A stretch of DNA of 63,824 bases, from the IMG/VR virus record IMGVR_UViG_3300037119_005132, positions 1 to 63,824 of that record; one strand, written 5' to 3'. A program made the translations under genes and the position numbers. Source of the DNA: a virus. The notes under the pieces are model-generated. The model saw only the letters and a list, made by a program, of their open reading frames with translations, was not told the DNA's origin and searched no databases. Below, in pieces: positions 1-63,824 of this stretch (the first letter of the stretch is position 1; every line of letters begins with the position of its first letter).

Positions 1-6
1 AAAGGA

Positions 7-115
7 TGCCTGGCCCCCCGCCCCCCGTTGAACCGTTTCAACAACGTGTGGGGGCCCTGTGGATAACTCTCACAGCAAGTTCCCAGGAAGCTGCGCGAAA
101 GCCGCGAAATCACGC
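7..115. repeat. Left copy of 109-base end repeat
   Basis: Identical base for base to 63713-63821. Six unmatched bases precede this copy and three follow the other, so the simplest reading is a circular or circularly permuted molecule whose assembly ends overlap. A true direct terminal repeat would normally begin at base 1. It carries a GTTGAA/TTCAAC inverted repeat (27-42) and one TGTGGATAA box (58-66). Confidence 0.9.
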
Positions 116-167
116 GGATCTCGGAGCTTTCGCGGTTCCGCGCTCTTGTGGATAACTCTGTGGATAA
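58..167 (+). other. DnaA-box-like cluster
   Basis: TGTGGATAA, the reverse complement of the DnaA consensus TTATCCACA, occurs at 58-66, 147-155 and 159-167, all in one orientation. The last two are 12 bases apart. Three exact copies of a 9-mer with this base content in 110 bases of a GC-rich genome are unlikely by chance. They may recruit host DnaA for replication of the circular phage genome. Confidence 0.55.
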
Positions 168-219
168 CCGCCACTCCGACGGCTCCCCCGTATGTGGCGG
201 GATGATTGATGAGCGCCGC

Positions 220-251
220 GGCTCTCCCCCGATATGGGGAGCGAGAGAGCC
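220..251. other. Nested hairpin
   Basis: An outer 7-base stem GGCTCTC/GAGAGCC (220-226, 245-251) encloses an inner CCCC/GGGG stem (227-230, 236-239). There is no T tract, so an intrinsic terminator is uncertain. It may be a structural element of the origin-like region. Confidence 0.4.
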
Positions 252-588
252 GTGAGCGCGTGAACCGCTCCCCCGTGAGCACAACTCCACAGTGACCAGA
301 TACCTAGCTCCCGCTCCGCGCTCCTGTCGCGATGACATGGCGCGGCCGCTCCGCTCTGGCTCTCATCCCTTACTCACAGCGCGCCACACGGTGCGAGAGA
401 GCCGCTACGCGCTCCACAGCGCTAGCGGCTTCCACTAGCGAAGAGAGAGCCGCAGAGAGCGTCACAGCGCGCTAGGTACTCACTAGACATAGCTCCCCCA
501 GAGAGAGCCGCAGAGCACAGCACAGCGATAGCGCGTAGCGCGGAAGCTGTGCCGCTCTCGCTCTCTCACGCGGGGGAGCGGTTCACCC

Positions 589-685
589 GTAAAGCTGGCT
601 TTACATGCTCCGCAGGGAGCGCGGAAAGCCAGCTTTACAGTCCACAGCGAAGCGGCTTGCTTCGCTGTAAAGCGCGGCTTTACAG
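589..685. promoter_or_regulatory. Cluster of three TGTAAAGC palindromes (candidate operators)
   Basis: Three inverted repeats precede gene 713: GTAAAGC-TG-GCTTTAC at 589-604, the degenerate GGAAAGC-CA-GCTTTAC at 623-638, and CTGTAAAGC-GCG-GCTTTACAG at 665-685. The same palindrome recurs singly at five other places. Dyad symmetry and clustering upstream of the first rightward gene suggest binding sites for a dimeric repressor or replication protein. The binding protein is not identified. Confidence 0.6.
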
Positions 686-712
686 AGTCGCCACACAAGA
701 GAGACAAGAGAC

Positions 713-1594
713 ATGACAACCGAACCGAACAACACTCCGGCCGCTCCCGCGAAGAAAGAGAGCGCGCCGGTCAGCAAGTCCGCGAAGCTCACGGCCGCAG
801 ACATTCCGGCCGCAGAGTGGGACAAGCTTGTCGCCGCTACCGGCACGAGCGTTACCGCCGTCGGAAAGACAATTCGCGCGGTAGCGGCTTTCTGTCAGAC
901 ACACTCCGCGCTCTCCGCGCGGAGCATGGCGGATTACATGAGCGCTCACTACACGTCCGGCGCGCTGTCGCACACGACGATTGCACAGCACAAGAGGTTG
1001 GATGCCACGCTCACGGAAGCCGTGGATTCCGCCATGCTGTCGGATGAGTTGTATGGGAAAGCGCGCTCGCTCTTCGCGGCCGCTTCCTATGGCTGGGAGC
1101 GCTGGGAGGCCGCGCTCAAATGGGAGAGCGTTACCGCTTCCACTCACGAGGGAGAGCGAAGCGCTCTCGCTGTGCGACTCATTACCGAGACCTACAGCGC
1201 GGCTCAGAGTGACGTGGCAATCGCGGCCGCAGAGACCGCGAAAGCCGCAGAGCGCGAAGCCGCGAAAGCGAAGCGCGAGGAAGCCGCAGAGACCGCGAAG
1301 CAAGAGCGCGCGGCCGAACTGGAAGCCGCTACCGGCGCGCTCCGGGAGGAACTGGAAGCGCTGAAAGCCACGGCCGTTACGGCCGGAGAGCCTGGCTCCT
1401 GGGAAGCGCTCACGCGGCTCTTGGGAGACTTCCTCCCTCACGCGGCGGACATGCCGCGCCACACGGGAGCCGCGCTCGCGGCTCTCATGGCGGCCGCCGG
1501 GAACAACTCTCCCGGAGACGTCGGCGCGAAGCATGGCGCGGCTCCCGCGCGGAAGCCGCAGAGCAAGAGCAAGCCGCTTCCGGTAGCGGCATGA
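713..1594 (+). CDS. Unknown protein with long coiled coil, first rightward gene
   Basis: The function is not recognised. The 293 residues comprise a Pro/Ala/Lys-rich disordered start (1-25), a helical globular part (about 28-160), an Ala/Glu/Lys/Arg stretch likely to be a coiled coil (about 160-225), and a basic Lys/Ser/Pro tail. Three palindromes lie upstream and two strong hairpins follow, so it looks like its own transcription unit. Only a purine-rich stretch precedes ATG 713. Its codon vocabulary (AGC, GCT, GCG-CTC pairs) matches the flanking control region and not other genes. A DNA-binding role in replication, partition or regulation is a guess from position. Confidence 0.8.
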   Translation: MTTEPNNTPAAPAKKESAPVSKSAKLTAADIPAAEWDKLVAATGTSVTAVGKTIRAVAAFCQTHSALSARSMADYMSAHYTSGALSHTTIAQHKRLDATLTEAVDSAMLSDELYGKARSLFAAASYGWERWEAALKWESVTASTHEGERSALAVRLITETYSAAQSDVAIAAAETAKAAEREAAKAKREEAAETAKQERAAELEAATGALREELEALKATAVTAGEPGSWEALTRLLGDFLPHAADMPRHTGAALAALMAAAGNNSPGDVGAKHGAAPARKPQSKSKPLPVAA

Positions 1595-1599
1595 CATAC

Positions 1600-1626
1600 G
1601 GGGGAGCGGCCGTAAGCCGCTCCCCC
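1600..1626 (+). terminator. Hairpin terminator after gene 713
   Basis: A perfect 11-base stem GGGGGAGCGGC/GCCGCTCCCCC with loop CGTAA lies five bases after the stop codon. No T run follows, as is common in GC-rich actinobacterial terminators. Confidence 0.6.
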
Positions 1627-1634
1627 ACACTCTC

Positions 1635-1668
1635 CCGCGAGGGAGCCGCTCACCCGGCTCTCTCGCGG
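1635..1668 (+). terminator. Second tandem hairpin
   Basis: A 14-base stem (1635-1648 with 1655-1668, one G-T pair) with loop CTCACC directly follows the first hairpin. The pair probably insulates gene 713 from the next operon. Confidence 0.5.
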
Positions 1669-1732
1669 CGAGAGCGCTTCGGCGACCCCGCTGGGCTTGC
1701 AGCTTTGCTGCCGATCCATCCGGGCCTCCGGG

Positions 1733-1753
1733 CTGTAAAGCGTCGCTTTACAG
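1733..1753. promoter_or_regulatory. TGTAAAGC palindrome, copy 4
   Basis: CTGTAAAGC-GTC-GCTTTACAG is a perfect 9-base-arm dyad in the gap between gene 713 and the membrane-protein operon. It is placed as an operator for the operon starting at 1853 would be. Confidence 0.6.
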
Positions 1754-1810
1754 GCCCTATGCCTATGTCGGCCGCGACACCCGCCGCGGCCGCGCGGTCA
1801 ATGAACGAAC

Positions 1811-1831
1811 GGCCGGACACCGTGTCCGGCC
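1811..1831. promoter_or_regulatory. GC-rich palindrome before gene 1853
   Basis: GGCCGGACAC-C-GTGTCCGGCC has perfect 10-base arms around one base. It lies between the TCAATGAACGA word at 1798 and the ribosome-binding site of gene 1853. The centre is too short for an ideal RNA hairpin, so a protein site is as likely as an attenuator. Confidence 0.45.
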
Positions 1832-1852
1832 TCGCACAGAAAGGTGACGTCA

Positions 1853-2047
1853 ATGAGCGTTCCCCCTCCCCGTCCGTCCACCCTCCGGGTGATCGAGACC
1901 CCGACCCGAGTGGTCAATGAAGATTCGCCCCGCGCACCGCGCACGACGACCATCGTCGTGCGCTGGGACAGCGTGCTCACCGTCCTCGCGTCGCTGCTCA
2001 TCGGCGTCGCGATCGGCGCGAGCGTCATGACGGCGGTGACGTTCTGA
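1853..2047 (+). CDS. Small single-pass membrane protein
   Basis: This 64-residue protein has a Pro/Thr/Arg-rich N-terminal half and one hydrophobic helix near its C-terminus (about residues 43-61, VLTVLASLLIGVAIGASVM). ATG 1853 is chosen because AGAAAGG sits 8 bases upstream; an in-frame GTG at 1844 is the alternative. The gene begins a tight membrane/secreted block, and its stop overlaps the next start (TGATG). The start lies within a TCAATGA word. No function is recognised; immediate-early envelope modification is possible. Confidence 0.75.
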   Translation: MSVPPPRPSTLRVIETPTRVVNEDSPRAPRTTTIVVRWDSVLTVLASLLIGVAIGASVMTAVTF

Positions 2048-2574
2048 TGCGCGGCTTCGACAAGGCCGTCTTCGTCGGCGCGGGCGTCATCATCGCCTGC
2101 GGATTCGGCGCGCTCACCGTGGCGATGGTCAGCCCGGCGTTCGCCGCGCCGGCCGATGAGCCCGAGGCTGTAAAGCCGCCCTTTACAGGGCAGCCGGTCT
2201 GCTCCGAGTCCGTCGTCGCCGTCGGCGGCGAGTGCTGGGGACCGCTGCTCGCTCTGCCCGAGGTGCCCATCACCGACGTGCCGTGCGTGACCGAGGACAG
2301 CGACAACTGCTACTGGGATGCGACCTCGAGTGGCAACGGCGAGGGGCGTTCGTTCGTCGTCGTCGATGGCAAGCAGTTCTTCGCCGATGAGCCGGAGCCC
2401 GTCGCTCCCGCGCCGGTCGCCGCCCCCACCGGTGAGCACACCGGCACCGTCGTGCTCAACGGCGAGACCTGGCAGTACACCGACGGGTGGGACACCATCC
2501 TGTACTGCGAGCTCCCGCTCACGGTCGGCATCGACGTCGACAACAACGGCAACGAGTGGGCAGCGTGCATGTGA
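2047..2574 (+). CDS. Secreted cysteine-containing protein with signal peptide
   Basis: The 175-residue product begins with a Sec-type signal: basic MRGFDK, a hydrophobic core (about 8-30) and an AFA-A cleavage site near residue 35. The exported part is acidic and carries several spaced cysteines (near SESVV, GECW, PCVTE, DNCYW, LYCE and the C-terminus), suggesting disulphides outside the membrane. It is coupled to the membrane protein upstream. A TGTAAAG palindrome is embedded at 2168-2188 and imposes the rare codons TTT and ACA. Surface exclusion or envelope alteration is an inference. Confidence 0.8.
   Translation: MRGFDKAVFVGAGVIIACGFGALTVAMVSPAFAAPADEPEAVKPPFTGQPVCSESVVAVGGECWGPLLALPEVPITDVPCVTEDSDNCYWDATSSGNGEGRSFVVVDGKQFFADEPEPVAPAPVAAPTGEHTGTVVLNGETWQYTDGWDTILYCELPLTVGIDVDNNGNEWAACM
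2168..2188. promoter_or_regulatory. TGTAAAG palindrome, copy 5 (intragenic)
   Basis: CTGTAAAGC-CGC-CCTTTACAG lies inside the secreted-protein gene. Seven of eight outer arm bases are conserved on each side and rare codons are tolerated to keep them, which points to selection on DNA. Confidence 0.5.
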
Positions 2575-2861
2575 TGGACGCGCTCACCATCCCCGAGGAG
2601 GGCACGGTCGATCGCTCGCCGCTCAACATCCTCGACGTGCTCTGCTCCCTGCAGGGTGACATCCTCATCGAGACGCGAGCGATCGAGCGCGAGTTCCAGC
2701 GACTCACCGCCCGGCCGCGCATCGAGGAGTCGATCATGCAACGTCTCGCCGTGCTGCGAGACGACCGCGATCGGCTGCTCACGTCGCTGCTCTGGCACCG
2801 CCAGGAGCACGCCCACATGCCCGACGACTGCGCGATCTGCGATCGGTCGGTGTCGCTGTGA
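2574..2861 (+). CDS. Small helical protein with C-terminal CxxC
   Basis: Function unknown. The 95 residues are mostly charged helix (DILIETRAIEREFQRL and following) and end in a His/Cys patch (WHRQEHAHMPDDCAICDRS) that could bind zinc. ATG 2574 overlaps the preceding TGA as TGATG. GTG at 2571 is an alternative start. Confidence 0.75.
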   Translation: MDALTIPEEGTVDRSPLNILDVLCSLQGDILIETRAIEREFQRLTARPRIEESIMQRLAVLRDDRDRLLTSLLWHRQEHAHMPDDCAICDRSVSL

Positions 2862-2956
2862 GCGTCGTGCTCGCCACCCTGTTCGTCACCTGGGCGGGCG
2901 CTCTCGTGCCCGCCCTGGTCGGCGCCGTCGTCCTGCTCATCGGCCGTGTCCGATGA
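2858..2956 (+). CDS. 32-residue membrane peptide
   Basis: GTG 2858 overlaps the previous stop as GTGA. The peptide is almost wholly hydrophobic (LATLFVTWAGALVPALVG, then VVLLIG) and ends in basic RVR, as expected for a one-helix membrane protein. It ends the membrane/secreted block 1853-2956. Function unknown. Confidence 0.6.
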   Translation: MSVVLATLFVTWAGALVPALVGAVVLLIGRVR

Positions 2957-3017
2957 CCGGAGCAGACTTGCTCTGCACCCCACGGCTCCCGTCACTGCGA
3001 CGGTCTCGCCGAACCAG

Positions 3018-3037
3018 CTGTAAAGATCCGCTTTACA
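3018..3037. promoter_or_regulatory. TGTAAAG palindrome, copy 6
   Basis: CTGTAAAG-ATCCG-CTTTACA lies 24 bases before ATG 3061, between the stop at 2956 and the ribosome-binding site AGAAAGG. It is in operator position for the gene 3061 operon. Confidence 0.55.
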
Positions 3038-3060
3038 CCACACCAGAAAGGCTGGCCGAC

Positions 3061-3306
3061 ATGGCTACTCTCACCCTCACTCCCCGCCACGGCAGGGACT
3101 ACCCCAGCAAGGCCGCCGTCGTCGCGGACTGGGCCGACGGCAAGGACTTCACCGTTGCCAACGCCTTCGACCCGGACAACGGCCGGCCGGTCTCGATCCG
3201 CGAGTCGAGCACGCTCGTCTCGCGTGGCATCGACGCCGTGCACATCCGGTACAAGAAGCTGACGCAGATCGCCGTCATCCCCGTCCGTCCGGTGGTCGAG
3301 TCATGA
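3061..3306 (+). CDS. Small conserved-looking protein, unknown
   Basis: An 81-residue protein with no recognised domain. It is rich in short beta segments (TVANAF, IDAVHIRYKKLTQIAVIPV). ATG 3061 is preferred because AGAAAGG lies upstream. An ATG at 2953 that would overlap the previous stop is open in the same frame but would run through the palindrome. The stop overlaps the next start (ATGA). Confidence 0.8.
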   Translation: MATLTLTPRHGRDYPSKAAVVADWADGKDFTVANAFDPDNGRPVSIRESSTLVSRGIDAVHIRYKKLTQIAVIPVRPVVES

Positions 3307-3659
3307 CCCGCCGTCGCGGGGTCGAGGTCGAGATCCTCGACCACGACAAGCTCGAGCGTGCGTGCCAGGCTCACGGTCTGGCGACCGTGAGCTACACCGG
3401 CAACGCGCTGCTCCGTCGCCTCGACGGCGGAGCCGCCGTCGTACTCAGCTACGAGGGCGTCGGCGCGACCACGCTCCGCACCGGCTGGGTCTACCTCGAC
3501 ACCGAGAGCCACGAGTGGCAGTGCCTGCCGCTCGGCGTGGTGGAGGACTGCCGTACCGGAGTCAATGAAGATCTCGCGGACTTCATCCGCACGTTCGGGT
3601 CGCGACTCGACTCGAACCACTACCGCTGGTTCCAGTGGGCGAACGAGGAGACGCGCTGA
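3303..3659 (+). CDS. Hypothetical protein, 118 aa
   Basis: No family is recognised. The protein is mixed alpha/beta, with a central GWVYLDTESHEWQCLPLGV stretch and a Trp-rich C-terminus (HYRWFQWANEE). It carries a TCAATGA word at 3562, read as Val-Asn-Glu. ATGA overlap upstream and TGATG overlap downstream place it in a translationally coupled string. Confidence 0.8.
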   Translation: MTRRRGVEVEILDHDKLERACQAHGLATVSYTGNALLRRLDGGAAVVLSYEGVGATTLRTGWVYLDTESHEWQCLPLGVVEDCRTGVNEDLADFIRTFGSRLDSNHYRWFQWANEETR

Positions 3660-3928
3660 TGCAGATCCACGACCACAACTACCAGCCGCACCCCGAGATG
3701 CCGACCGTCAAGGTCTGCGCCGTCGAGGACTGCGGCGCCCACGAGAACGACGGGCAGGAGACCTGGCTCGGCCAGATCCTGGTCGACGGCGAGTGGGTGG
3801 ACTACGCCCGAGGCTCGTCGGCCTCGGCGACCCGCTGGGCCGACGAGGATCCAGCCGCCCGCCGCGTCGTCTACTGGACGCGCAAGAGCGTGCCGGTCTG
3901 GCCTGTCAATGAACGAGAGGCACGCTGA
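3659..3928 (+). CDS. Small His/Cys protein, unknown
   Basis: 89 residues, start ATG 3659 in a TGATG overlap. The N-terminus has several His residues and a C-x5-C pair (CAVEDCGAHEND) that might bind metal. The rest is Trp-rich (GEWVDYARG, YWTRKSVPVWPV). It ends with a TCAATGAACGA word. Function unknown. Confidence 0.75.
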   Translation: MQIHDHNYQPHPEMPTVKVCAVEDCGAHENDGQETWLGQILVDGEWVDYARGSSASATRWADEDPAARRVVYWTRKSVPVWPVNEREAR

Positions 3929-4068
3929 TGTGGGTCGTCTTCAACAATGAGACCGGCTGGTCGGACGAGTCGATGCGGTTCGGCAGCAAGGGTGAGGCGC
4001 TGGACTTCATCGCCGAGCACGACGACAACGAGTACGGCGACACGTTCGGGATGAGGTACGAGCCGTGA
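3928..4068 (+). CDS. 46-residue acidic protein
   Basis: ATG 3928 overlaps the previous TGA, and the stop overlaps the next GTG as GTGA. The sequence is acidic (FIAEHDDNEYGD) with an aromatic start (MWVVFNN). Coding is supported by the coupled overlaps and GC-rich third positions. Function unknown. Confidence 0.65.
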   Translation: MWVVFNNETGWSDESMRFGSKGEALDFIAEHDDNEYGDTFGMRYEP

Positions 4069-4289
4069 CCGGCCCCGTCGTGCACCTCAGCACCGGCGGC
4101 ACCGGGTCCGCCTGCGGTCGCCGTGCGGTGGATTGGTCAGCGGACGAGACCGCCAAGGTGGACTGCGCTCGGTGCCGCGGCACCTTCCGGTTCACCCTCC
4201 GCCTGCTGGACGAGCGCGGCGAGCGTGTCCCGTCCAGCTATGGCGAGCGCGTGGCCGCACACCGCCGACGGGTGGCCCGCGATGTGTGA
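4065..4289 (+). CDS. Small zinc-ribbon-like protein
   Basis: 74 residues from GTG 4065. It shows a Cys at 17 and a CARC pair (about 34-37) followed by an Arg-rich helix (RVAAHRRRVARDV). Several small proteins in this arm have similar single CxxC sites. It overlaps both neighbours. Function unknown; nucleic-acid binding is possible. Confidence 0.7.
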   Translation: MTGPVVHLSTGGTGSACGRRAVDWSADETAKVDCARCRGTFRFTLRLLDERGERVPSSYGERVAAHRRRVARDV

Positions 4290-4719
4290 GTCCTGCGTCC
4301 CCACCTGCAGCGTGCCACTGCGTCTGTCAACGAACGGCAACGAGGTCGGCCAGGTGACCCTGCTCATCGACAGCGAAGAGGCAGGCACCGTCGTCAGTGT
4401 CACCGTCGGCGCGAAGGAACTGGCACAGGCCGTGTGGACTGCGGCCAGGGATCACGAGGCCCGCGTTGCTCGGCAGAAGACTGCCGAGTGGGTGTACCAG
4501 ATGACCCTCGGCCGCACCGTCCCGAAGTTCCGAGCGAACCGGCAGATCGCGACGTCGCCGTCGAGCCTGCCGTTCCAGATGCGGCACCATCACGTCGAGT
4601 TGCTCGACACCGAGGTGCCGGCGAGCTACGACGCGGAGGTCTCGGTGATGTTCCACAACGGATACACCGCCCGCGTCCCCTTCTACGACCTCGTGCCACT
4701 GCGCGAGGACGACGAGTAG
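4282..4719 (+). CDS. Hypothetical protein, 145 aa
   Basis: ATG 4282 is favoured because it follows the end of gene 4065 with an 8-base overlap; longer upstream readings only shadow that gene. The N-terminus has three Cys in nine residues (MCESCVPTCS), followed by a beta-rich part and a C-terminal domain with HHHVELLD. TCAACGAACGG at 4327 is read as Ser-Thr-Asn. Function unknown. Confidence 0.75.
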   Translation: MCESCVPTCSVPLRLSTNGNEVGQVTLLIDSEEAGTVVSVTVGAKELAQAVWTAARDHEARVARQKTAEWVYQMTLGRTVPKFRANRQIATSPSSLPFQMRHHHVELLDTEVPASYDAEVSVMFHNGYTARVPFYDLVPLREDDE

Positions 4720-4731
4720 TCAATGAACATC

Positions 4732-4753
4732 GGCTGTCGGAATTCCGACAGCC
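4732..4753. promoter_or_regulatory. TGTCGGAATTCCGACA palindrome, copy 1
   Basis: A perfect 22-base dyad whose core is TGTCGGAATTCCGACA with GGC/GCC outside. It lies between genes, 12 bases after a TCAATGAACAT word and immediately before the ribosome-binding site of gene 4775. It may be an operator or, in mRNA, a translation-controlling hairpin. Confidence 0.6.
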
Positions 4754-4774
4754 CCTCCCTGGAAAGGAACCATC

Positions 4775-6340
4775 ATGGCGAACTACTTCGACACCACCAC
4801 GCGATGGGTCGAGTCTTGCCTGGGCTACACCGACAAGCCGCTGCTCAAGAACCAGCGACTCATCGCCGAGCCCGACCGCATATTCAGCTACGGCTCGCAC
4901 TTCGAGATCGCCCGGCTGATCCGTGACCGCCGCAACCCGTCGCACTGGATGCTCAACGGCGACCGCTTCTCGAACACCACGTCGAAGCACCAGGCCGAGG
5001 TGCTGTCCGCGATCACTCGCCGTGGCGGGAGCTTCGCTCGGGTGACCATCCCGTACTCCGCACTGCAAGCCGCCGACGTGCTGCTCGACACCGTGCAGAT
5101 CATCGAGTCAACGAGCGACCGGTGGGAGGACAAGCAGGAGTACTTCTTCGAGATGCCCGACTCGGCGACGTGGCAGTACGACACCGAGACCGCCGACCTC
5201 GGCGGCTGGCAGAACAGCAAGACCGGGGAGTTCGTCGCCCGGCTCAAGATGTGGGGCGAGGCGGGGCCGAAGCGGGAGACCTGCGTGGTCTGCGCGGATC
5301 CCGTCGGCTACACCCACTTCATGAAGCGCTACCCCGACGACCGCGACCGCGCATGGACGGAGTGCCAGGAGTTCACGCAGGCCATCGAGGCGCACCGCCG
5401 CTTCTCGCATGGCGAGTGGGAAGAGATCGGCCACCACGTGCGGGAGACCGGACGGCGCAGGCTCATCTCCCGTCGTGGCTGGTCGGAGTGGGATCTCGTG
5501 GACATGCCCGACTCCCCGACCGGCGTGGCCTACGTCCGCTCGTGGCGCCGGCACTGGCTGGGTGAGTCAGTGATCAAGGCGAAGGTGAGTTACCGCGGCT
5601 GGCGCAAGTGCCGTGACTGCGAGGGCACCGGCGTGGTCGAGCCCTACTCAGAGCAGTTCGCCGACGACGAGGGCTACGGCCCACTGACCGAGCGGCAGGA
5701 CTACTACGCACCGTCGACCGAGCAGTACGTCACCATCGTCGAGGACGACATGGTCTACCGTCATCGAACGGTGGCCGCCACCCGGATGACCACGCAGTGC
5801 GCCACCTGCGGCGGCGCCCGCCGGAACCGGGTGAACCGGCAGCGTTGGGCGTACTTCCTCAGCGGGTTCGACTCGAACGAGGCACGGCCGAGCTACTTCT
5901 TCTGCGAGCTCCCGCCCAAGGCACGCCCGACCAGCGTGGCCGAGGCGTACCAGGTGCTCAAGCCGAGGGCCGTGCACCTGGCTGAGCAGGTCGGCCGCGA
6001 GGTCGAGCGGCAGGGCGACATCTTCTGGATCCCGATGCCGGACCTCACCCTCCGTGACCTGCGCAAGCAGGGCACGTACCTCAAGCGGACCACCGAGACC
6101 GAGGAGTTCGGCCCGGACTGGAACCGCACTCGAGTGACGCACTTCACCGGCGGGGAACCGTACGTGCTGTCAACGAACCACACCGTGAGTGAGCAGGTCC
6201 GAGTGGGCCGACTCACCTACGCCCGAGGGATCATGCGGCACGAGCCGGACCGCCGCCGTCCCGACCACGCCCGGATCAAGCTGGGCGACGGCAAGACCTG
6301 GGGTCTTGTCGTGAAGAACACCGTTCCGATTGGAGCCTGA
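4775..6340 (+). CDS. Large early protein with DnaJ-like zinc motifs
   Basis: 521 residues, the largest product of the early block. Clear features are CVVC (about 169-172), CRDCEGTG (about 279-286) and CATCGG (about 349-354). The last two resemble the CxxCxGxG repeats of DnaJ zinc-binding domains and probably form one zinc site around an inserted acidic stretch. The N-terminal half is Trp/Tyr-rich and globular. ATG 4775 follows CCCTGGAAAGGA. It is preceded by palindrome copy 1 and contains TCAACGA words at 5108 and 6170. No enzyme signature was found; a chaperone-like or nucleic-acid role cannot be told apart. Confidence 0.85.
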   Translation: MANYFDTTTRWVESCLGYTDKPLLKNQRLIAEPDRIFSYGSHFEIARLIRDRRNPSHWMLNGDRFSNTTSKHQAEVLSAITRRGGSFARVTIPYSALQAADVLLDTVQIIESTSDRWEDKQEYFFEMPDSATWQYDTETADLGGWQNSKTGEFVARLKMWGEAGPKRETCVVCADPVGYTHFMKRYPDDRDRAWTECQEFTQAIEAHRRFSHGEWEEIGHHVRETGRRRLISRRGWSEWDLVDMPDSPTGVAYVRSWRRHWLGESVIKAKVSYRGWRKCRDCEGTGVVEPYSEQFADDEGYGPLTERQDYYAPSTEQYVTIVEDDMVYRHRTVAATRMTTQCATCGGARRNRVNRQRWAYFLSGFDSNEARPSYFFCELPPKARPTSVAEAYQVLKPRAVHLAEQVGREVERQGDIFWIPMPDLTLRDLRKQGTYLKRTTETEEFGPDWNRTRVTHFTGGEPYVLSTNHTVSEQVRVGRLTYARGIMRHEPDRRRPDHARIKLGDGKTWGLVVKNTVPIGA

Positions 6341-6343
6341 TCA

Positions 6344-6502
6344 ATGACCGACGAGCGCATGACTGTCGATGAGTACGACCGGAAGAAGGAACAGGCCCGC
6401 ATCCTGCGGGCCCTGGTCGACGAGACCGCTCGGCACAACGCGGAACTCACGCGATTGTCCGCCGAACTGGACAAGTACACCACCGAGGAGGTGAAGAAAT
6501 GA
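6344..6502 (+). CDS. 52-residue charged helical protein
   Basis: ATG 6344 lies in a TGATCAATGACC context four bases after the previous stop. The sequence is one long amphipathic, Glu/Lys/Arg-rich helix (YDRKKEQARILRALVDE), probably a small coiled coil. Its stop overlaps the next start (ATGA). Function unknown. Confidence 0.65.
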   Translation: MTDERMTVDEYDRKKEQARILRALVDETARHNAELTRLSAELDKYTTEEVKK

Positions 6503-6669
6503 ACACCACGCTTGAGAAGCCGGCCATCATCACGGAGGCCGCACCCCTCACGATCAGCGAGACCTCCTCGCTCATCGCCCTGGCCGCGTCGTCCGAGAGG
6601 ACGGCGCGCGTCAAGGCCACCGGCCCGCGCGCGTCGCGCGGCTGGCAGCTGGGCGGCAACGTCGATTAG
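6499..6669 (+). CDS. 56-residue hypothetical protein
   Basis: It begins at ATG 6499 in an ATGA overlap. Ala/Ser/Thr-rich (SLIALAASS) with a basic C-terminal part (KATGPRASRGWQ). Possibly a small DNA-mimic or regulatory peptide; nothing is recognised. Confidence 0.55.
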   Translation: MNTTLEKPAIITEAAPLTISETSSLIALAASSERTARVKATGPRASRGWQLGGNVD

Positions 6670-6677
6670 GACTGAAC

Positions 6678-6751
6678 CAGTCCGAACCTCTGGTCGCTTC
6701 ATGCGTGGAGCCCGGTAAGAGCGGCAGCGAACTGCCGCCACCAGAGGACTG
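6678..6751 (+). ncRNA. Candidate structured RNA with three-way junction
   Basis: In the 197-base gap before gene 6867, CCTCTGGT (6687-6694) pairs with ACCAGAGG (6740-6747), extended by CAGT/ACTG (6678-6681, 6748-6751) over a bulge. Inside are two hairpins: GCTTC/GGAGC (6696-6700, 6707-6711) and GCGGCAG-CGAA-CTGCCGC (6721-6738). The fold resembles a reduced tRNA but lacks an anticodon arm and the T-loop consensus. A leader RNA or small RNA is possible. Confidence 0.4.
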
Positions 6752-6832
6752 ACGTTGTCCCATGCGGCCCGCCTCTCTCCTCCATCGGGGGATGTCGGAG
6801 AGCGGCGGGTCGGGCGGACCAGCCCACCCCCC

Positions 6833-6848
6833 TGTCGGAATTCCGACA
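6833..6848. promoter_or_regulatory. TGTCGGAATTCCGACA palindrome, copy 2
   Basis: The exact 16-base dyad lies directly before TCAACGAAGG (6851) and the AAGGAG ribosome-binding site of gene 6867. This spacing relative to a start codon is similar to copy 1. Confidence 0.6.
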
Positions 6849-6866
6849 CCTCAACGAAGGAGCATC

Positions 6867-7187
6867 ATGCCCACCCCATACACCGAAGAACTCCCGGTCG
6901 AACTGACCGTGTACCGCTCGCCGCTCGACGGCGTGGTCGTGGTGCAGATCGACCAGGAGCAGAACAACGAGGACGACACCCGCATCCGGGTGTACCTCAA
7001 CGACAGCCCGATCTTCCAGGGCGACACCGAGACGACCAACGTGCTCGACCAGGACGTGGCGCGGGACGTGGCGATGCACCTCGAGAAGGCATGGGATGTC
7101 GCGAGCGTGCCGCAGTGGGAGCAGGAGAACCTGCGCATCGCCGTCTACAAGGCGATCAGCTTCCTCCGTGGGGAGAGCCGGTCGTGA
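6867..7187 (+). CDS. Hypothetical protein, 106 aa
   Basis: ATG 6867 follows GAAGGAG. The product is acidic and beta-rich (VELTVYRS, GVVVVQIDQ, TRIRVYLND), with a helical C-terminus. It starts a new coupled string after the structured RNA and palindrome. No function recognised. Confidence 0.8.
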   Translation: MPTPYTEELPVELTVYRSPLDGVVVVQIDQEQNNEDDTRIRVYLNDSPIFQGDTETTNVLDQDVARDVAMHLEKAWDVASVPQWEQENLRIAVYKAISFLRGESRS

Positions 7188-7495
7188 CCGAGAACAAGAA
7201 CGAGATCGCCGACGACCTGCGAGAGCGAGCACTGCGCGACAACCTCACCAAGCTCGAGTGCGCGGCGTGCTCCGAGGATGCCTGGGTCAGCGACCCGGAC
7301 ATGATCGCGAAGCTGGTCGAGCACTGCGTGTTCGACCACGGCCAGCGTCAGGGCATCATCGGCGTCAAGTGCGTCGACTTCATCTCGGCCTACGTGCTGA
7401 GCGACAGGCTCGGCGCCGCACCGACCAGCGACCACGAGGTGATGTGGCGCCACGAGCAGACCGCCGAGCACCCGACCGTCTCCGGGGAGTGGTGA
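7184..7495 (+). CDS. Small CxxC/His protein, possible zinc finger
   Basis: 103 residues from GTG 7184 (GTGA overlap). A CAAC pair (about 26-29) followed by EHCVFDH (about 47-53) could make a C2H2-type zinc site. The remainder is helical. Function unknown. Confidence 0.75.
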   Translation: MTENKNEIADDLRERALRDNLTKLECAACSEDAWVSDPDMIAKLVEHCVFDHGQRQGIIGVKCVDFISAYVLSDRLGAAPTSDHEVMWRHEQTAEHPTVSGEW

Positions 7496-7758
7496 TGCCC
7501 GCCCGCACCAAGGGCAAGTGGCTCACCGCCCACGCCCTGCGCTCCGGCCTCGCCGAGCAGTGGGCCACGCAGACCGGCGGCATCACCGTCACCGTCGAGC
7601 TCCGCTGGGTCAAGGAACGAGATGAGTTCCGCGTGATGGTGATGCGCGGCCGGCAGATCGACAAGCTCACCCTCTACCCCTCCCTCGCAATGGCGAGGCA
7701 GGTCTTCATCACAGAACAGCGGCACGCCGTGTCGCCCCGAGAAAGGAACCAGCCATGA
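7495..7758 (+). CDS. Hypothetical protein, 87 aa
   Basis: ATG 7495 in a TGATG overlap. Basic N-terminus (MPARTKGKWLTAHALRSG) and a beta hairpin (ITVTVELRWV, EFRVMVMRG), suggesting a small alpha/beta fold. Contains the ribosome-binding site GAAAGGAACC of the next gene near its end. Function unknown. Confidence 0.75.
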   Translation: MPARTKGKWLTAHALRSGLAEQWATQTGGITVTVELRWVKERDEFRVMVMRGRQIDKLTLYPSLAMARQVFITEQRHAVSPRERNQP

Positions 7759-8432
7759 CCCTGACCACCAGCGTCCGATGGGTCGAAGCCGACAGCGACT
7801 TCGAGACCGAGACGCACTACGCCGAAACCGATGACCCGCGCATCCTCGCCGTCATCCAGCGCGACCCGTACGCACAGATCAGCGAGCTCTACGACGGGGA
7901 CGCGATCAACCCCATCATCTACGTCGACCACGTCCACGGCCTCAGCTTCGACTGGGTCGCAGGCTACGACGGCGGCGAGGCTGCGCTGATGCAGCGTGCG
8001 TACGACGAGTGGGGCTGGAACGGCACCGCCCGCCGCTACCTCTGGATCTTCCACGGCATCGCGGCCGACAACGCACACGGTGGGTACGACAGGTCAGGCA
8101 ACTGGATCGTCGCCACCTCCCGCGCCTACCGCGAGCACGTCGGCATCACCGAGGAGCCGAAGACCTACGACGAGGCGCTCGAAGATGTGAAGTCCATCGC
8201 GAAGGATCTCTCCGACGCGCTGGATGGATACGTCTACGGCGTGGGATGGGCAGTCAATGAAGCTCGCCGGCTGCCGAGCGATGAGCCCATCGACCTGCTC
8301 GACGGGGAGTGGGAGATCGACATGCAGTGCTGGGGATTCGTCGGCGAGGAGTATGCCCGAACGACGGCGCTCGCCTTCGACCACGGCTCGCCCGACCTGC
8401 CGCTCATGCTCTCGATCGAGGTGTGCGCATGA
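7755..8432 (+). CDS. Hypothetical protein, 225 aa
   Basis: A medium-sized acidic protein with no recognised motif. Notable segments are a His-rich middle (YVDHVHGLSFDW) and aromatic patches (DEWGWNGTARRYLWIFHG). ATG 7755 follows GAAAGGAACCAGCC and overlaps the previous stop. TCAATGA at 8254 is read as Val-Asn-Glu using rare AAT and GAA codons. Confidence 0.82.
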   Translation: MTLTTSVRWVEADSDFETETHYAETDDPRILAVIQRDPYAQISELYDGDAINPIIYVDHVHGLSFDWVAGYDGGEAALMQRAYDEWGWNGTARRYLWIFHGIAADNAHGGYDRSGNWIVATSRAYREHVGITEEPKTYDEALEDVKSIAKDLSDALDGYVYGVGWAVNEARRLPSDEPIDLLDGEWEIDMQCWGFVGEEYARTTALAFDHGSPDLPLMLSIEVCA

Positions 8433-14893: not shown

Positions 14894-15280
14894 ATGACCA
14901 TACCCACCACCGCTCAACTGGCGGCCGCCGACGCCGCCGTCTCTGCGTATCAGCAGGGCTACAGCATGGGACGTGAGGCCGGCATCGCCGAGGCCAACGT
15001 CCAGATCGAGTGTCTCGAGTTGCTGGTCGACCACTGGTACTACGTCGCGAACAACCCGACCGCCGTCGCCGAGGAGCGCAAGCGCGACCTCTCGTACATC
15101 GAGCTCCGCGAAGCGCGTGCCGAGCGACAGGCGAAGCACCGCGAGTGGGACGAGAACGAGCAGCAGATGTTCGACCAGGCCCGCACCATGATCGACCAGG
15201 GTCACAGCGACCGCACCATCGCTGTGACCCTCGGTCTGTTCCTGCCGCTCGTCGCGAACCTGCGGTCCGGCGCCCTGTGA
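14894..15280 (+). CDS. Hypothetical charged protein, 128 aa
   Basis: ATG 14894 has a strong AAGGAGGG site and lies in a TCAATGACC context. The product is helical, with an Arg/Glu-rich middle (EERKRDLSYIELREARAERQ) and a C-terminal segment (TMIDQGHSDRTIAVTLGLFL) resembling a helix-turn-helix. First gene of the operon encoding the helicase; possibly a helicase loader or regulator, from position only. Confidence 0.78.
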   Translation: MTIPTTAQLAAADAAVSAYQQGYSMGREAGIAEANVQIECLELLVDHWYYVANNPTAVAEERKRDLSYIELREARAERQAKHREWDENEQQMFDQARTMIDQGHSDRTIAVTLGLFLPLVANLRSGAL

Positions 15281-16614
15281 GCGCCGAGCCCAACGGGTGG
15301 CCCGAGGTTCTCGGTCCCCCGGCAGGAGCCCTGCCTCATCGCGACAACCAAGACCTCCGAGACTCCTGGTCTCACCCCGACAACCAGCAGAAGCAGGCAC
15401 CCGCTCGCTCGCTGTCGCTCCGCTCGCTCGCCGACGCCGAGTCGAAGAAGACGCGCTTCCTCTGGGAGGGCATGATCCCGCAGTCGGCAGTCACCATCTG
15501 CGCCGGACGCGGTGGCGTGGCCAAGTCCACGTTCGCGATCTGGCTCGGTGGACAGTTGAACCAGGGCATCCTGCGCGGCGAGCTCTACGCTCAGCCGACC
15601 TCCGTGCTGTACGTCAGCCACGAGGACTCGCTGGAAGAGGTCGTGCTGCCCCGAGTGGATGCCAACGACGCCGACCGGACGCTGTTCTACTCGCTCGGCA
15701 TTGAGTCGAAAGAGGTCGGCGGCATCACCGTGCCGCGGCTCCCGGAGGATCTGCCGCTGATCCGGCAGGCCATCGAGGAGACCGACGCCAAGCTGCTGAT
15801 CATCGACCCGATCACGTCGACCCTCTCCGGTGGTGACAACGACCGGATGGCCGACGTCCGGCAGGTGATGGACCCGCTCAATGCGATGGCCGCCGAGCTC
15901 GGCGTGAGCGTCATCGGGATCGCCCACTTCCGCAAGGGCGGCGGCTCCCAGTCCGACATGATCTCCGGCTCTCACGCCTGGCGTGATGCCGCGCGGTGCG
16001 TCATCCTCTTCGCCCGAGACGAGGAGGCGGACTGCACGGTCATCACGCTCGAGAAGATCAACTCCGGCCAGGCCGGGAAGAGCTTCAAGTACCACCTCGA
16101 CATCGTCCAGCAGCTGACCGATGAGGGCACCTTCACGGATGTCGGCAAGGTCGTCTGGGAGGGCGAGTCCACCGCTTCGGTCGGAGACATCATCAACAAC
16201 GAACAGGAACGCTCGCGCCAGGGGAGCACGGCGAACGAACTCCTCGAGTACATGCGCTCGTTCAAGGGCCGGGCCGTCAAGGGCGAGGACATCGTTAAGC
16301 ACTTCGCTGTCGACGGCGTCAAGCCGGCGACGGTGAGGCAGAACCTCGGCCGCATGGTCACCCGAGGTCTGCTGACGAAGCCCGCCTACGGATGGTTCGC
16401 CGCAGTGATGCCGCCCGACGAAGAAGCCTCACGCGCGCGTGGGGGTGTCATAGGTGTCACACCTGTAGAACTTGCAGAAAGTGTGACAGGTACGACAGGT
16501 GTGACCCCCCCACGCGCGCGAGACAACGCCTCCCTCTGTCGCATTTGCGGCTATCCCCTCGCCGACGTAGTGATCGCCAGCGGCGAGCGGGTCCACCCCA
16601 CCTGCGATCGCTAG
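15277..16614 (+). CDS. RepA-like RecA-fold replicative helicase (AAA_25 type)
   Basis: The 445-residue protein has a Walker A AGRGGVAKST (about 76-85), a YVSHEDS strand, Walker B LLIIDPI (about 173-179) and GIAHFRKGGG (about 214-223), typical of hexameric RepA/DnaB-like NTPases. A winged-helix-like segment follows (about 313-370: GEDIVKHFAVDGVKPATVRQ), then a C-terminal zinc knuckle (CRICGYPL...HPTC). GTG 15277 overlaps the previous stop. DNA encoding residues about 385-415 holds a long inverted repeat with iteron-like words. It probably unwinds phage DNA at the origin. Confidence 0.9.
   Translation: MSAEPNGWPEVLGPPAGALPHRDNQDLRDSWSHPDNQQKQAPARSLSLRSLADAESKKTRFLWEGMIPQSAVTICAGRGGVAKSTFAIWLGGQLNQGILRGELYAQPTSVLYVSHEDSLEEVVLPRVDANDADRTLFYSLGIESKEVGGITVPRLPEDLPLIRQAIEETDAKLLIIDPITSTLSGGDNDRMADVRQVMDPLNAMAAELGVSVIGIAHFRKGGGSQSDMISGSHAWRDAARCVILFARDEEADCTVITLEKINSGQAGKSFKYHLDIVQQLTDEGTFTDVGKVVWEGESTASVGDIINNEQERSRQGSTANELLEYMRSFKGRAVKGEDIVKHFAVDGVKPATVRQNLGRMVTRGLLTKPAYGWFAAVMPPDEEASRARGGVIGVTPVELAESVTGTTGVTPPRARDNASLCRICGYPLADVVIASGERVHPTCDR
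16430..16522. repeat. Inverted repeat with iteron-like words inside helicase gene
   Basis: The left arm (about 16430-16466, CACGCGCGCGTGGGGG then TGTCA and GGTGTCACACCTGT) mirrors the right arm (16495-16522, ACAGGTGTGACCC then CCCACGCGCGCGAG). Between and within them AGGTGTSACA-like words recur (GGTGTCACACC, GTGTGACAGGT, ACAGGTGTGACC). The encoded peptide is low in complexity. The layout recalls origins embedded in replication-protein genes, such as lambda O. Confidence 0.5.
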
Positions 16615-18891: not shown

Positions 18892-19472
18892 GGACTGACA
18901 CCAGAACGGAGCTCGTCGACCTGATCCGCGCCAATCCCACGGCGGAGGTCGTCCTCCCGGACGAGCTCTACAGCGACCGTCACAACGGCGTGCGCACCGA
19001 GATCGAGGGGATCAAGGTGATGCTGCACCGCTGGCTGTATGACCAGCTGAACCCGACCTCCCCGCTCGGCCGTGACCGACTGCGCCGCGACCCCGCGCAC
19101 GACCCGCGCAACGTGAACCCGCTGCTCATGCGACGGGTCGCGCCGAACGACCGACTGCCGACCGACCGCTGCCGTAAAGGGCACCTTTACAGCGAGGTCG
19201 GCGAGCTCCCCGAGGGTCGCGGCGACAAGCGGCGATGTCGGCAGTGCTGGCGAGAATCGAGGGATCGGGTGAACCAGGCCGAGCGCACGGAGTACCCCAG
19301 CGCGAACCCCGTGCACGCCAACCGCGACAAGACCCACTGCCCGAACGGGCACGAGTACACCCCCGAGAACACGCTCCGCTGGGCGGCCGACAAGGGCCGC
19401 CGGCGGTGCCGCATCTGTGAGACCACCCGCGCGAAGGCGCGCTGGAACGAGAGGAAGAACGATGGCAACTAG
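18888..19472 (+). CDS. Double zinc-ribbon protein, HNH-like without HNH core
   Basis: 194 residues from ATG 18888. Two ribbons are clear: CRKGHLYSEVG...CRQC (about 96-121) and CPNGHEYTPENTL...CRIC (about 147-176), the type found at the C-terminus of phage HNH nucleases. No HNH motif is seen; residues 1-90 are a basic DNA-binding-like segment. A TGTAAAG palindrome copy overlaps the first ribbon. It may be an HNH relative that lost nuclease activity, or a DNA-binding accessory. Confidence 0.8.
   Translation: MRTDTRTELVDLIRANPTAEVVLPDELYSDRHNGVRTEIEGIKVMLHRWLYDQLNPTSPLGRDRLRRDPAHDPRNVNPLLMRRVAPNDRLPTDRCRKGHLYSEVGELPEGRGDKRRCRQCWRESRDRVNQAERTEYPSANPVHANRDKTHCPNGHEYTPENTLRWAADKGRRRCRICETTRAKARWNERKNDGN
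19172..19192. promoter_or_regulatory. TGTAAAG-type palindrome, copy 7 (intragenic)
   Basis: CCGTAAAGG-GCA-CCTTTACAG uses AAA and CTT codons, rare in this window. It overlaps codons for the KGHLYS zinc-ribbon motif, so part of the match could be coding coincidence. Confidence 0.4.
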
Positions 19473-62648: not shown

Positions 62649-62917
62649 CACTCGCCCCGTCCCGGCCGCCAGCCAATGCGGGCCGCCGTCTTGAACTCGC
62701 TGAGACGTGTCAGCGCGACCTGGCGCTCCTCGCCGGATGCCGCGAGCTTGTGCCAGATCCGCGTCGCCTGCGCGCGGTCGCCGTCGAGGAGCGCCGTGCC
62801 GTAGCCGATGGCCCAGGCGCGGTCGATGGCGGGGTGATGCTCAAGACCCTGCGCGACGAACGCCGCGAACCAGTCCGCGACGGGGAACATCGCCTGGCGG
62901 ATGACGATCGGCCTCAC
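62648..62917 (-). CDS. Hypothetical protein, 89 aa
   Basis: GTG 62917 forms a GTGA overlap with the upstream stop; GTG 62920 is equally possible. Helical (FAAFVAQGLEHHPAIDRAWA) with a basic C-terminus. Function unknown. Confidence 0.74.
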   Translation of the reverse strand: MRPIVIRQAMFPVADWFAAFVAQGLEHHPAIDRAWAIGYGTALLDGDRAQATRIWHKLAASGEERQVALTRLSEFKTAARIGWRPGRGE

Positions 62918-63363
62918 CACGCGGGGGCCTCCGTCGACTCAAGCGCCTCGGCCCAGTCTGCCTTCGAGCCGCGGAAGCCGTAGTGCGGATTCACGTACCA
63001 AGCCGTCGAGGAGATCTTGAACAGGAAGCGCCGCGCGCGCAGGTCGCGGATCGTCTTGTAGAGGAAGTTCCGGTCGAGGTTCAGCGCCAGCGCCATCTCC
63101 GTCGCCGTCATGCGCGCCCACGCTTGCTCCGGCGGGTTGTAGTCGCTGAGGACGAGCGCCAGTACGCGCTGCTCCGTCTGGTTCAGCGACTTCGGGGCCT
63201 TCTGAGCCGCCTCCATCTCGAGCATCACGTACATGACCTCTCCCTTCCCTGTCCGGCGCCGGCGCCGGGTCGGCTCCGGCCTGGTGTCGTAGATCTCGCC
63301 GTTCTCGTACACCTCCGCGACCTTGTGGCCCCGGGCCTGCCTGCTGGTCTTCGGCTCCGGCAT
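62914..63363 (-). CDS. RepL-like winged-helix protein, first gene of the leftward arm
   Basis: 149 residues from ATG 63363 with AGGAG upstream. The basic N-terminus (PTRRRRRTGKG) leads to a winged helix: LNQTEQRVLALVLSDYN, MTATEMALALNLDRNFLYKT, IRDLRARRFLFKISSTAWYV, then NPHYGFRGS. The order helix-turn-helix, wing, then NPxxxFxG is that of plasmid RepL-type and related proteins. Next to DnaA-like boxes, it could be an origin-binding initiator or a transcriptional regulator. Confidence 0.78.
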   Translation of the reverse strand: MPEPKTSRQARGHKVAEVYENGEIYDTRPEPTRRRRRTGKGEVMYVMLEMEAAQKAPKSLNQTEQRVLALVLSDYNPPEQAWARMTATEMALALNLDRNFLYKTIRDLRARRFLFKISSTAWYVNPHYGFRGSKADWAEALESTEAPAW

Positions 63364-63415: not shown

Positions 63416-63605
63416 GCTACCTGATGTGTAGCCACTCCACCACTCTGAGAGGCACTTTGCCCTACTCCCGACTGGGATCGCGGCCCCTTGGGGGGCAGTT
63501 CTTGTATTGAGTATCTTTCTTCACCCTGTTCCCCCTCCTTGATCGTCACGGTCTTCGGTTCTTCTGCTCTTCCTCGCCATGACCCTTCGATTCCTGCCGA
63601 TGCAG

Positions 63606-63631
63606 AGCCCCCCGGCCTTCGCCGGGGGGCT
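63606..63631. terminator. Strong hairpin terminator
   Basis: AGCCCCCCGGC-CTTC-GCCGGGGGGCT is a perfect 11-base stem with a tetraloop, lacking a long T run. It may shield the control region from transcription entering from either side. Confidence 0.75.
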
Positions 63632-63712
63632 TCGTCATGTTCCGGTGCCGGCATACCTCTTGTGATGTATCCCATTACCCGAATGGAGACGCGGTTGTGC
63701 TCCAACCCGGGG

Positions 63713-63821
63713 TGCCTGGCCCCCCGCCCCCCGTTGAACCGTTTCAACAACGTGTGGGGGCCCTGTGGATAACTCTCACAGCAAGTTCCCAGGAAGCTGC
63801 GCGAAAGCCGCGAAATCACGC
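63713..63821. repeat. Right copy of 109-base end repeat
   Basis: Identical to 7-115, including the TGTGGATAA box (63764-63772). Joining the two copies makes a continuous circle in which the control region runs from 63.36 kb to gene 713. Confidence 0.9.
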
Positions 63822-63824
63822 TCT

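What the first reader, a model, noticed from the sequence alone, without database searches (positions are those of the whole stretch)
1..1700. Compositional island with DnaA-like boxes at the arm boundary
The control region and gene 713 share a vocabulary (GAGAGC, GCGCTC, CTCCCCCGT) found nowhere else in the window, carry three TGTGGATAA boxes, nested hairpins and palindromes, and lie next to a RepL-like gene across the circular junction. This suggests an acquired plasmid-like replication module.
Basis: partly seen in the sequence, partly recalled or inferred. Interest (0 to 1): 0.65.

Follow-up and report, generated by a model that had tools for sequence, protein, structure and literature searches.

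The report
Phage arm-boundary control region with DnaA boxes
This strangely spelled stretch of a phage genome is the switch region between its two gene arms, carrying landing sites for the host's replication starter protein DnaA in the same place as in known Microbacterium phages, so it looks like the phage's own fast-changing control and probable replication-start region rather than a piece taken from a plasmid.

Summary
The observation largely holds. Bases 1 to ~1660 are the strongest compositional outlier in the genome (36 MADs), and gene 713 shares its word usage with the adjacent non-coding DNA. Three exact DnaA boxes (58, 147, 159; 0.0007 expected in that region) and significant hairpins are present. 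Two corrections: the fourth box (63764) is the first one read twice through a 112-base end overlap, and GAGAGC and GCGCTC are enriched here, not unique.

The 'acquired plasmid module' reading is not supported. Gene 713 and the island have no match in plasmids, phages or species genomes, and the 'RepL' gene is a generic winged-helix protein below Pfam's cut-off. The site is a resident phage locus: relatives carry a compositional outlier, a fast-diverging first gene and lineage-specific palindromes at the same arm boundary. In six Microbacterium phages all 11 exact DnaA boxes lie within bases 269-674 of the ~62 kb record, in the window's orientation; in several the inner pair has the same 12-bp pitch.

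Best reading: early control region and probable host-DnaA-recruiting origin. Origin activity is inferred. Closer metagenomic relatives lack the boxes, and the GC-skew minimum lies near 20 kb.

The parts
1..1660 (.). Compositional island: non-coding control region, gene 713 and its short downstream stretch, all sharing one word usage
58..66 (-). DnaA box TTATCCACA (outer, single)
147..155 (-). DnaA box TTATCCACA, first of a pair at 12-bp pitch
159..167 (-). DnaA box TTATCCACA, second of the pair
63710..63824 (+). End overlap with 4-115 (circular assembly); its box at 63764-63772 is the box at 58-66 again
219..252 (.). Nested hairpin GGCTCTCCCC..GGGGAGCGAGAGAGCC
   Evidence: segment 200-275, z -3.7
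589..638 (.). Long hairpin made of two imperfect TGTAAAGC palindromes facing each other
   Evidence: segment 585-690, z -6.8
644..668 (.). Perfect 10-bp hairpin ACAGCGAAGC..GCTTCGCTGT
   Evidence: fold, read on the sequence
666..684 (.). Palindrome TGTAAAGC-N3-GCTTTACA, 28 nt before the gene 713 start; candidate operator
1734..1752 (.). Same palindrome, after gene 713
2169..2187 (.). Same palindrome (1 mismatch to the core), inside ORF 2047-2574
3019..3037 (.). Same palindrome (1 mismatch to the core), 23 nt before the ATG at 3061
713..1594 (+). First gene of the rightward arm, 293 aa, Ala-rich, predicted all-helical with a long coiled coil (low-confidence model); orphan
62914..63363 (-).
63447..63480 (+). 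Conserved non-coding block GAGAGGCACTTTGCCCTACTCCCGACTGGGATCG between the winged-helix gene and the island
63606..63631 (.). Strong GC hairpin AGCCCCCCGGCCTTCGCCGGGGGGCT
   Evidence: z -5.3

Best explanation
The region is the early control region at the boundary of the two arms of a circularly assembled siphophage related to Squashvirus (cluster EG) Microbacterium phages. Transcription diverges here: leftward from the winged-helix gene into the structural arm, rightward from gene 713 into the early and replication arm (shown from gene layout). The three same-strand DnaA boxes, two of them at 12-bp pitch, most likely bind host DnaA cooperatively and help start or regulate phage replication next to hairpin-forming DNA (inferred). 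Gene 713 is the first early gene, and the TGTAAAGC-N3-GCTTTACA palindromes are operators of the early arm (inferred from position). The odd composition belongs to a locus that diverges very fast in every relative examined; it does not mark a recent plasmid import.
For: Layout: + strand genes 713-28792, - strand genes 28852-63363; AT-skew minimum at 371, maximum at 29,116. Relatedness: MuF-protease fusion 41-42% identical to cluster EG phages; major head protein 72-88% identical to IMG/VR contigs. Boxes: all 11 exact TTATCCACA in six EG-type genomes lie at 269-674, all in one orientation, the window's orientation relative to the first early gene. If box places were independent the chance would be about 4e-22, but these genomes are related, so that figure overstates it. 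The 12-bp pair is exact in Squash and Rudy, and decayed in Phinky, RubyRalph, SadLad, Nike and AluminumJesus. Resident locus: winged-helix gene syntenic in L124 (35% identity, E 1.7e-21), L048 and L045; 34-nt non-coding block 32/34 identical in L045 and shared in L124; control region is an outlier (KL 0.27-0.33) in L124, G002, L049, L051 and L123; the boundary gene is an outlier in L124, L049, L123 and G002 g201. Palindromes: four exact sites in the first 3.1 kb, none in 100 shuffles; analogues are CCCGAACGTTCGGG in G002, AAAGGGCCCTTT in G009 and the published GATCAACCNNGGTTGATC of cluster EG, 14-22 bp upstream of start codons (PMC7302621).
Against: TTATCCACA is absent from the whole of G002 (63.8 kb, head protein 73% identical), from the 62 kb G007 and from the 35.6 kb fragment G001, and from the loci L124, L049, L051 and L123, so the boxes are not needed across the lineage. 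In several EG phages the outer box also forms the start of a small ORF (GTG GAT AAC), so that one may be coding. GC-skew minimum is near 20 kb. No sigma-70-like promoter was found near gene 713. The helicase/primase-like gene lies about 15 kb away (15277-16614). Only two of the four palindromes sit just before a start codon.
Confidence: 0.6

Rival explanations
1. Acquired plasmid-like replication module: the control region, gene 713 and the winged-helix gene were imported together from a plasmid.
For: Extreme foreign-looking composition of gene and flanking DNA; DnaA boxes; weak RepL and Rep3 winged-helix matches.
Against: No plasmid, phage or genome match. RepL and Rep3 are below cut-off, and homologues look like generic MarR or HTH_24 winged helices. 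The winged-helix gene has normal phage composition (GC3 0.93), a conserved non-coding block and syntenic homologues in phages.
Confidence: 0.1
2. The boxes are real DnaA-binding sites but regulatory: host DnaA acts as a transcription switch or timing sensor at the divergent early region, and replication starts elsewhere.
For: Boxes lie in a divergent intergenic region beside the first early gene; GC-skew minimum near 20 kb and the helicase gene at 15 kb would allow an origin elsewhere.
Against: Conserved paired 12-bp pitch with hairpins beside it resembles initiation sites more than a single regulatory site (inference); no promoter overlapping the boxes was found.
Confidence: 0.25
3. The island's vocabulary is a by-product of local microduplication and inverted-repeat turnover in a hairpin-rich segment, from which gene 713 was extended or born; it has no function as a vocabulary. 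(Compatible with the best explanation.)
For: Degenerate repeat families run through both gene and non-coding DNA; an imperfect repeat array lies inside the gene at 1226-1301; gene 713 is an orphan; several relatives' contigs end in the equivalent outlier segment.
Against: Codon phase is strong along the gene, and most of its words are not in tandem arrays.
Confidence: 0.35
4. The island is the packaging terminus (terminal direct repeat) region rather than an origin.
For: EG phages have 203-209 bp direct terminal repeats here (PMC7302621, PMC9670968; Squash about 204 bp), and the window is cut here with a 112-base overlap.
Against: The EG repeat lies between the box pair and the first gene and does not contain the boxes. 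The window's overlap has mismatched tips; G002 shows a similar overlap of about 127 bases inside its structural genes, so an assembler overlap is the simpler cause.
Confidence: 0.3

Closest known systems
Cluster EG (Squashvirus, Gillianvirus) Microbacterium phages: ends around the last gene (gp108 family)
   Same: Two arms, MuF-protease fusion, DnaA boxes at the arm boundary in the same orientation with a 12-bp pair, inverted repeats beside them, a fast-diverging first early gene, start-associated palindromes
   Different: No DNA-level match; different palindrome; gene 713 not detectably homologous to gp108; winged-helix gene at the boundary; far stronger compositional anomaly; shorter distance between outer box and box pair (89 bp against roughly 300-380 bp)
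IMG/VR 3300044683_000109 (L124, G009)
   Same: Syntenic winged-helix gene, shared non-coding block CCCTACTCCCGACTGGGATCG, + strand first gene of odd composition, homologue of ORF 2047, palindrome family on the early arm
   Different: No DnaA box, different palindrome (AAAGGGCCCTTT), first-gene protein not detectably similar
Start-associated sequences and inverted repeats of cluster K, O and EG actinobacteriophages
   Same: Repeated short palindromes upstream of early-arm start codons
   Different: Sequence unrelated; here only two of four lie just before starts
DnaA-dependent origins (bacterial oriC; plasmid and phage origins with DnaA boxes)
   Same: Several consensus boxes in one orientation, 3-bp gap between paired boxes, adjacent structured DNA
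   Different: No iteron array, no adjacent known initiator gene, GC-skew minimum elsewhere

Membership tests
DnaA-box origin | Cluster of consensus DnaA boxes beyond chance | tested here: met
   3 exact boxes, 0.0007 expected
DnaA-box origin | Cluster conserved in place and orientation in relatives | tested here: inconclusive
   Met in EG phages; not in G002, L124, L049, L051, L123
DnaA-box origin | Cumulative GC-skew minimum at the site | tested here: not met
   Minimum at 19,904; signal weak and confounded by gene direction; supportive rather than strictly defining
DnaA-box origin | Adjacent AT-rich unwinding element | not tested
   No scan was run
DnaA-box origin | Replication initiates here and needs DnaA | not testable with these tools
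   Needs mapping and mutants
RepL plasmid replicon | RepL domain above curated cut-off | tested here: not met
   12.8 bits against 20.3; homologue 15.4 bits
RepL plasmid replicon | Similarity to plasmid DNA or proteins | tested here: not met
   Gene 713 and the island; the winged-helix protein was not searched in plasmids
Cluster EG phage (Squashvirus) | Nucleotide similarity to members | tested here: not met
   Window 1-8000 has no match
Cluster EG phage (Squashvirus) | MuF-protease fusion homologue | tested here: met
   41-42% identity
Cluster EG phage (Squashvirus) | GATCAACCNNGGTTGATC start-associated repeats | not tested
   The EG motif itself was not scanned in the window; the window's own palindrome TGTAAAG-N5-CTTTACA is absent from Squash
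Cluster EG phage (Squashvirus) | About 200-bp terminal direct repeats | tested here: inconclusive
   112-base end overlap, 99%, may be an assembly overlap
gp108 family (EG boundary gene) | Sequence or profile similarity of gene 713 | tested here: not met
   hhalign probability 0.2-0.3%
ParB/KorB-type DNA-binding protein (for gp108) | Significant fold match | tested here: inconclusive
   Best hit SopB, E 0.56; 8 of the top 50 are ParB-family chains, none significant; gene 713 gave no such hit and a poor model

The most novel reading that the evidence does not exclude
The arm boundary of this phage lineage is a self-specific control and origin cassette. Its first gene encodes a rapidly diverging ParB/KorB-like protein that binds a lineage-specific palindrome repeated along the early arm. 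Protein, palindrome and surrounding DNA change wholesale between lineages, like incompatibility groups of plasmids, while in some lineages host DnaA is recruited to paired boxes beside it.
Probability: 0.18. Interest if true: 0.7.

Novelty: new variant of a known kind. Interest (0 to 1): 0.48.

Why it matters
To my knowledge neither the replication origins of phages of this group nor the proteins that read their start-associated repeats are known. A DnaA-box cluster restricted to the arm boundary of cluster EG phages gives a precise, testable candidate origin. The held literature that I searched does not mention it (no DnaA hit in PMC7302621; nothing relevant). The recurrent, fast-diverging outlier gene and palindromes at the same place suggest a specificity system that resets between lineages.

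Tried and rejected
Homologues of gene 713: tblastn in phages and plasmids, pattern plus tblastn scans of viral and genome contigs, Pfam, PHROGs, NCBIfam: nothing. Profile comparison with the gp108 family, and BLASTP against the boundary genes of G002 and L124: nothing for gene 713; G002 g401 gives a weak P of 0.002-0.005 against gp108, not enough. Structure of gene 713: pLDDT 56.6, Foldseek hits meaningless. Opposite-strand ORF 680-1630 as the real gene: rejected on codon-position pattern. Correlating word enrichment across relatives: dominated by pseudocounts, not used. A 25-base exact search for the box pair in bacterial genomes found nothing; I lengthened the pattern too far, so it does not test host oriC similarity. 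Tandem repeats as the cause of the island: only one short imperfect array, inside gene 713. Rfam: no match.

Full report
What is there. The window is one IMG/VR virus record of 63,824 bases. Its ends overlap: 4-115 equals 63710-63821 at 99% identity, so the genome most simply assembled as a circle and the box at 63764 is the box at 58 again. Genes run rightward from 713 to 28792 and leftward from 63363 to 28852, so the finding sits at the divergent boundary of the two arms. PHROGs matches give terminase, portal, MuF-protease fusion, head and tape-measure proteins on the leftward arm, and a RecT-like annealing protein and a helicase/primase-like protein on the rightward arm.

Composition. A 4-mer scan gives the first 1.75 kb a divergence of 0.39-0.40 against a median of 0.050 (36 MADs), with nothing beyond z = 3.1 outside the first 2.75 kb. 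Gene 713 by itself scores 0.380 where no other 880-nt window exceeds 0.121, and its profile is nearer to the 1-712 control region than that of any other segment. GC3 of gene 713 is 0.75 against 0.78-0.98 for the rest. GAGAGC (18 here, 37 elsewhere) and GCGCTC (20, 142) are enriched rather than unique; CTCCCCCGT (3, 0) is unique. The gene looks coding: codon-phase chi-square 86.7, against 6.5 in 1-712.

Boxes, hairpins, palindromes. Three exact TTATCCACA are present where 0.0007 are expected. The 585-690 segment folds far better than shuffles (z -6.8), 200-275 has z -3.7 and 63600-63640 z -5.3; 90-140 and 515-580 do not stand out. A 19-bp palindrome TGTAAAG-N5-CTTTACA occurs exactly at 666, 1734, 2169 and 3019, with weaker copies at 19173 and 56402, and none in 100 shuffles. 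Two of the four lie 23-28 nt before a start codon.

Relatives. The MuF-protease fusion is 41-42% identical to cluster EG Microbacterium phages, and the head protein is 72-88% identical to several metagenomic contigs. In six EG-type phages searched whole, all 11 exact TTATCCACA fall at 269-674 of the record, all in one orientation, matching the window relative to the first early gene. The inner pair has the same 12-bp pitch in Squash and Rudy, and decayed remnants at that pitch in Phinky, RubyRalph, SadLad, Nike and AluminumJesus. Since these phages share ancestry, the 4e-22 probability is only nominal, but the restriction to one place is clear. The outer box in several of them coincides with the GTG GAT AAC start of a small ORF. 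The paper that describes cluster EG reports 203-204 bp terminal repeats and 8-10 copies of an 18-bp repeat GATCAACCNNGGTTGATC, 14-22 bp before start codons (PMC7302621); it contains no mention of DnaA.

Residence of the locus. The winged-helix gene at 62914-63363 has syntenic homologues at the boundary in L124 (35% identity, E 1.7e-21), L048 and L045. A 34-nt non-coding block beside it is 32/34 identical in L045 and shared in L124. The non-coding boundary segment is a strong outlier in L124, G002, L049, L051 and L123 (KL 0.27-0.33), and the boundary gene itself exceeds every other window of its locus in L124, L049, L123 and G002 g201, but not in L051 or G002 g401. Each lineage has its own palindrome: CCCGAACGTTCGGG in G002, AAAGGGCCCTTT variants in G009. 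What is peculiar to the window is the degree of the anomaly and the shared vocabulary of gene and control region, which the relatives do not show.

What it is not. No plasmid, phage, viral-contig or species-genome match was found for gene 713 or the island. RepL and Rep3 scores of the winged-helix protein are below Pfam's cut-offs, and its homologues look like generic winged helices. The acquired-plasmid reading therefore has little left beyond the composition itself.

Mechanism. I favour an early control region with a DnaA-recruiting origin. Shown: divergent layout, boxes beyond chance, conservation in EG phages, hairpins, palindromes, a coding but orphan first gene. Inferred: DnaA binding, origin activity, operator function of the palindromes, function of gene 713. 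Against: G002, whose head protein is 73% identical to the window's, has no TTATCCACA at all, and the boundary loci of other relatives lack it too; the GC-skew minimum lies at 19.9 kb. The AT-skew minimum at 371 probably only mirrors gene direction.

A lead on the first gene. The EG counterpart gp108 folds with good confidence over residues 11-110, and ParB-family DNA-binding chains (SopB, Spo0J, VirB) make up 8 of the top 50 PDB matches including the first, none significant (best E 0.56). ParB-type proteins read palindromes of about 16-18 bp (general knowledge), which fits the repeats, but this is a lead, not a test, and gene 713 itself showed neither homology to gp108 nor a usable model.

Noticed in passing
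Left ends of EG phages: L004, L026, L028, L032-L037 (about 380-600 of each record): An array of inverted repeats whose 7-mer arms change together by lineage (GAGAACC/GGTTCTC, GAGATGC/GCATCTC, GAGAAGG/CCTTCTC), followed by ACATAGTAGTAACAGGG; looks like a structured RNA or operator array.
   Followed up: no
L045, L047, L054, L061, L069 (first ~1 kb): Metagenomic contigs of relatives tend to end inside the equivalent compositional outlier, as does the window; assembly breaks or true genome ends.
   Followed up: no
L024 3494-4099 and 4493-5698 (G002): Two minus-strand boundary genes; the first (201 aa) is an extreme compositional outlier full of CCGCG and GAGCG words.
   Followed up: partly
window 2047-2574: Small membrane-type protein with an NCYWDA motif (PHROG 19904), similar to a G002 protein (read by eye, L024 about 6842-7178) and to L124; a synteny anchor for the early arm.
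   Followed up: partly
L124 4230-9211: AAAGGGCCCTTT-type palindromes repeatedly a few tens of bases before start codons on the early arm.
   Followed up: partly
window 144-168: The box pair TTGTGGATAACTCTGTGGATAAC has exact 23-24 base matches in unrelated viruses (Lactococcus phage PMBT69, a Dipodfec virus), E 0.1-0.5.
   Followed up: no
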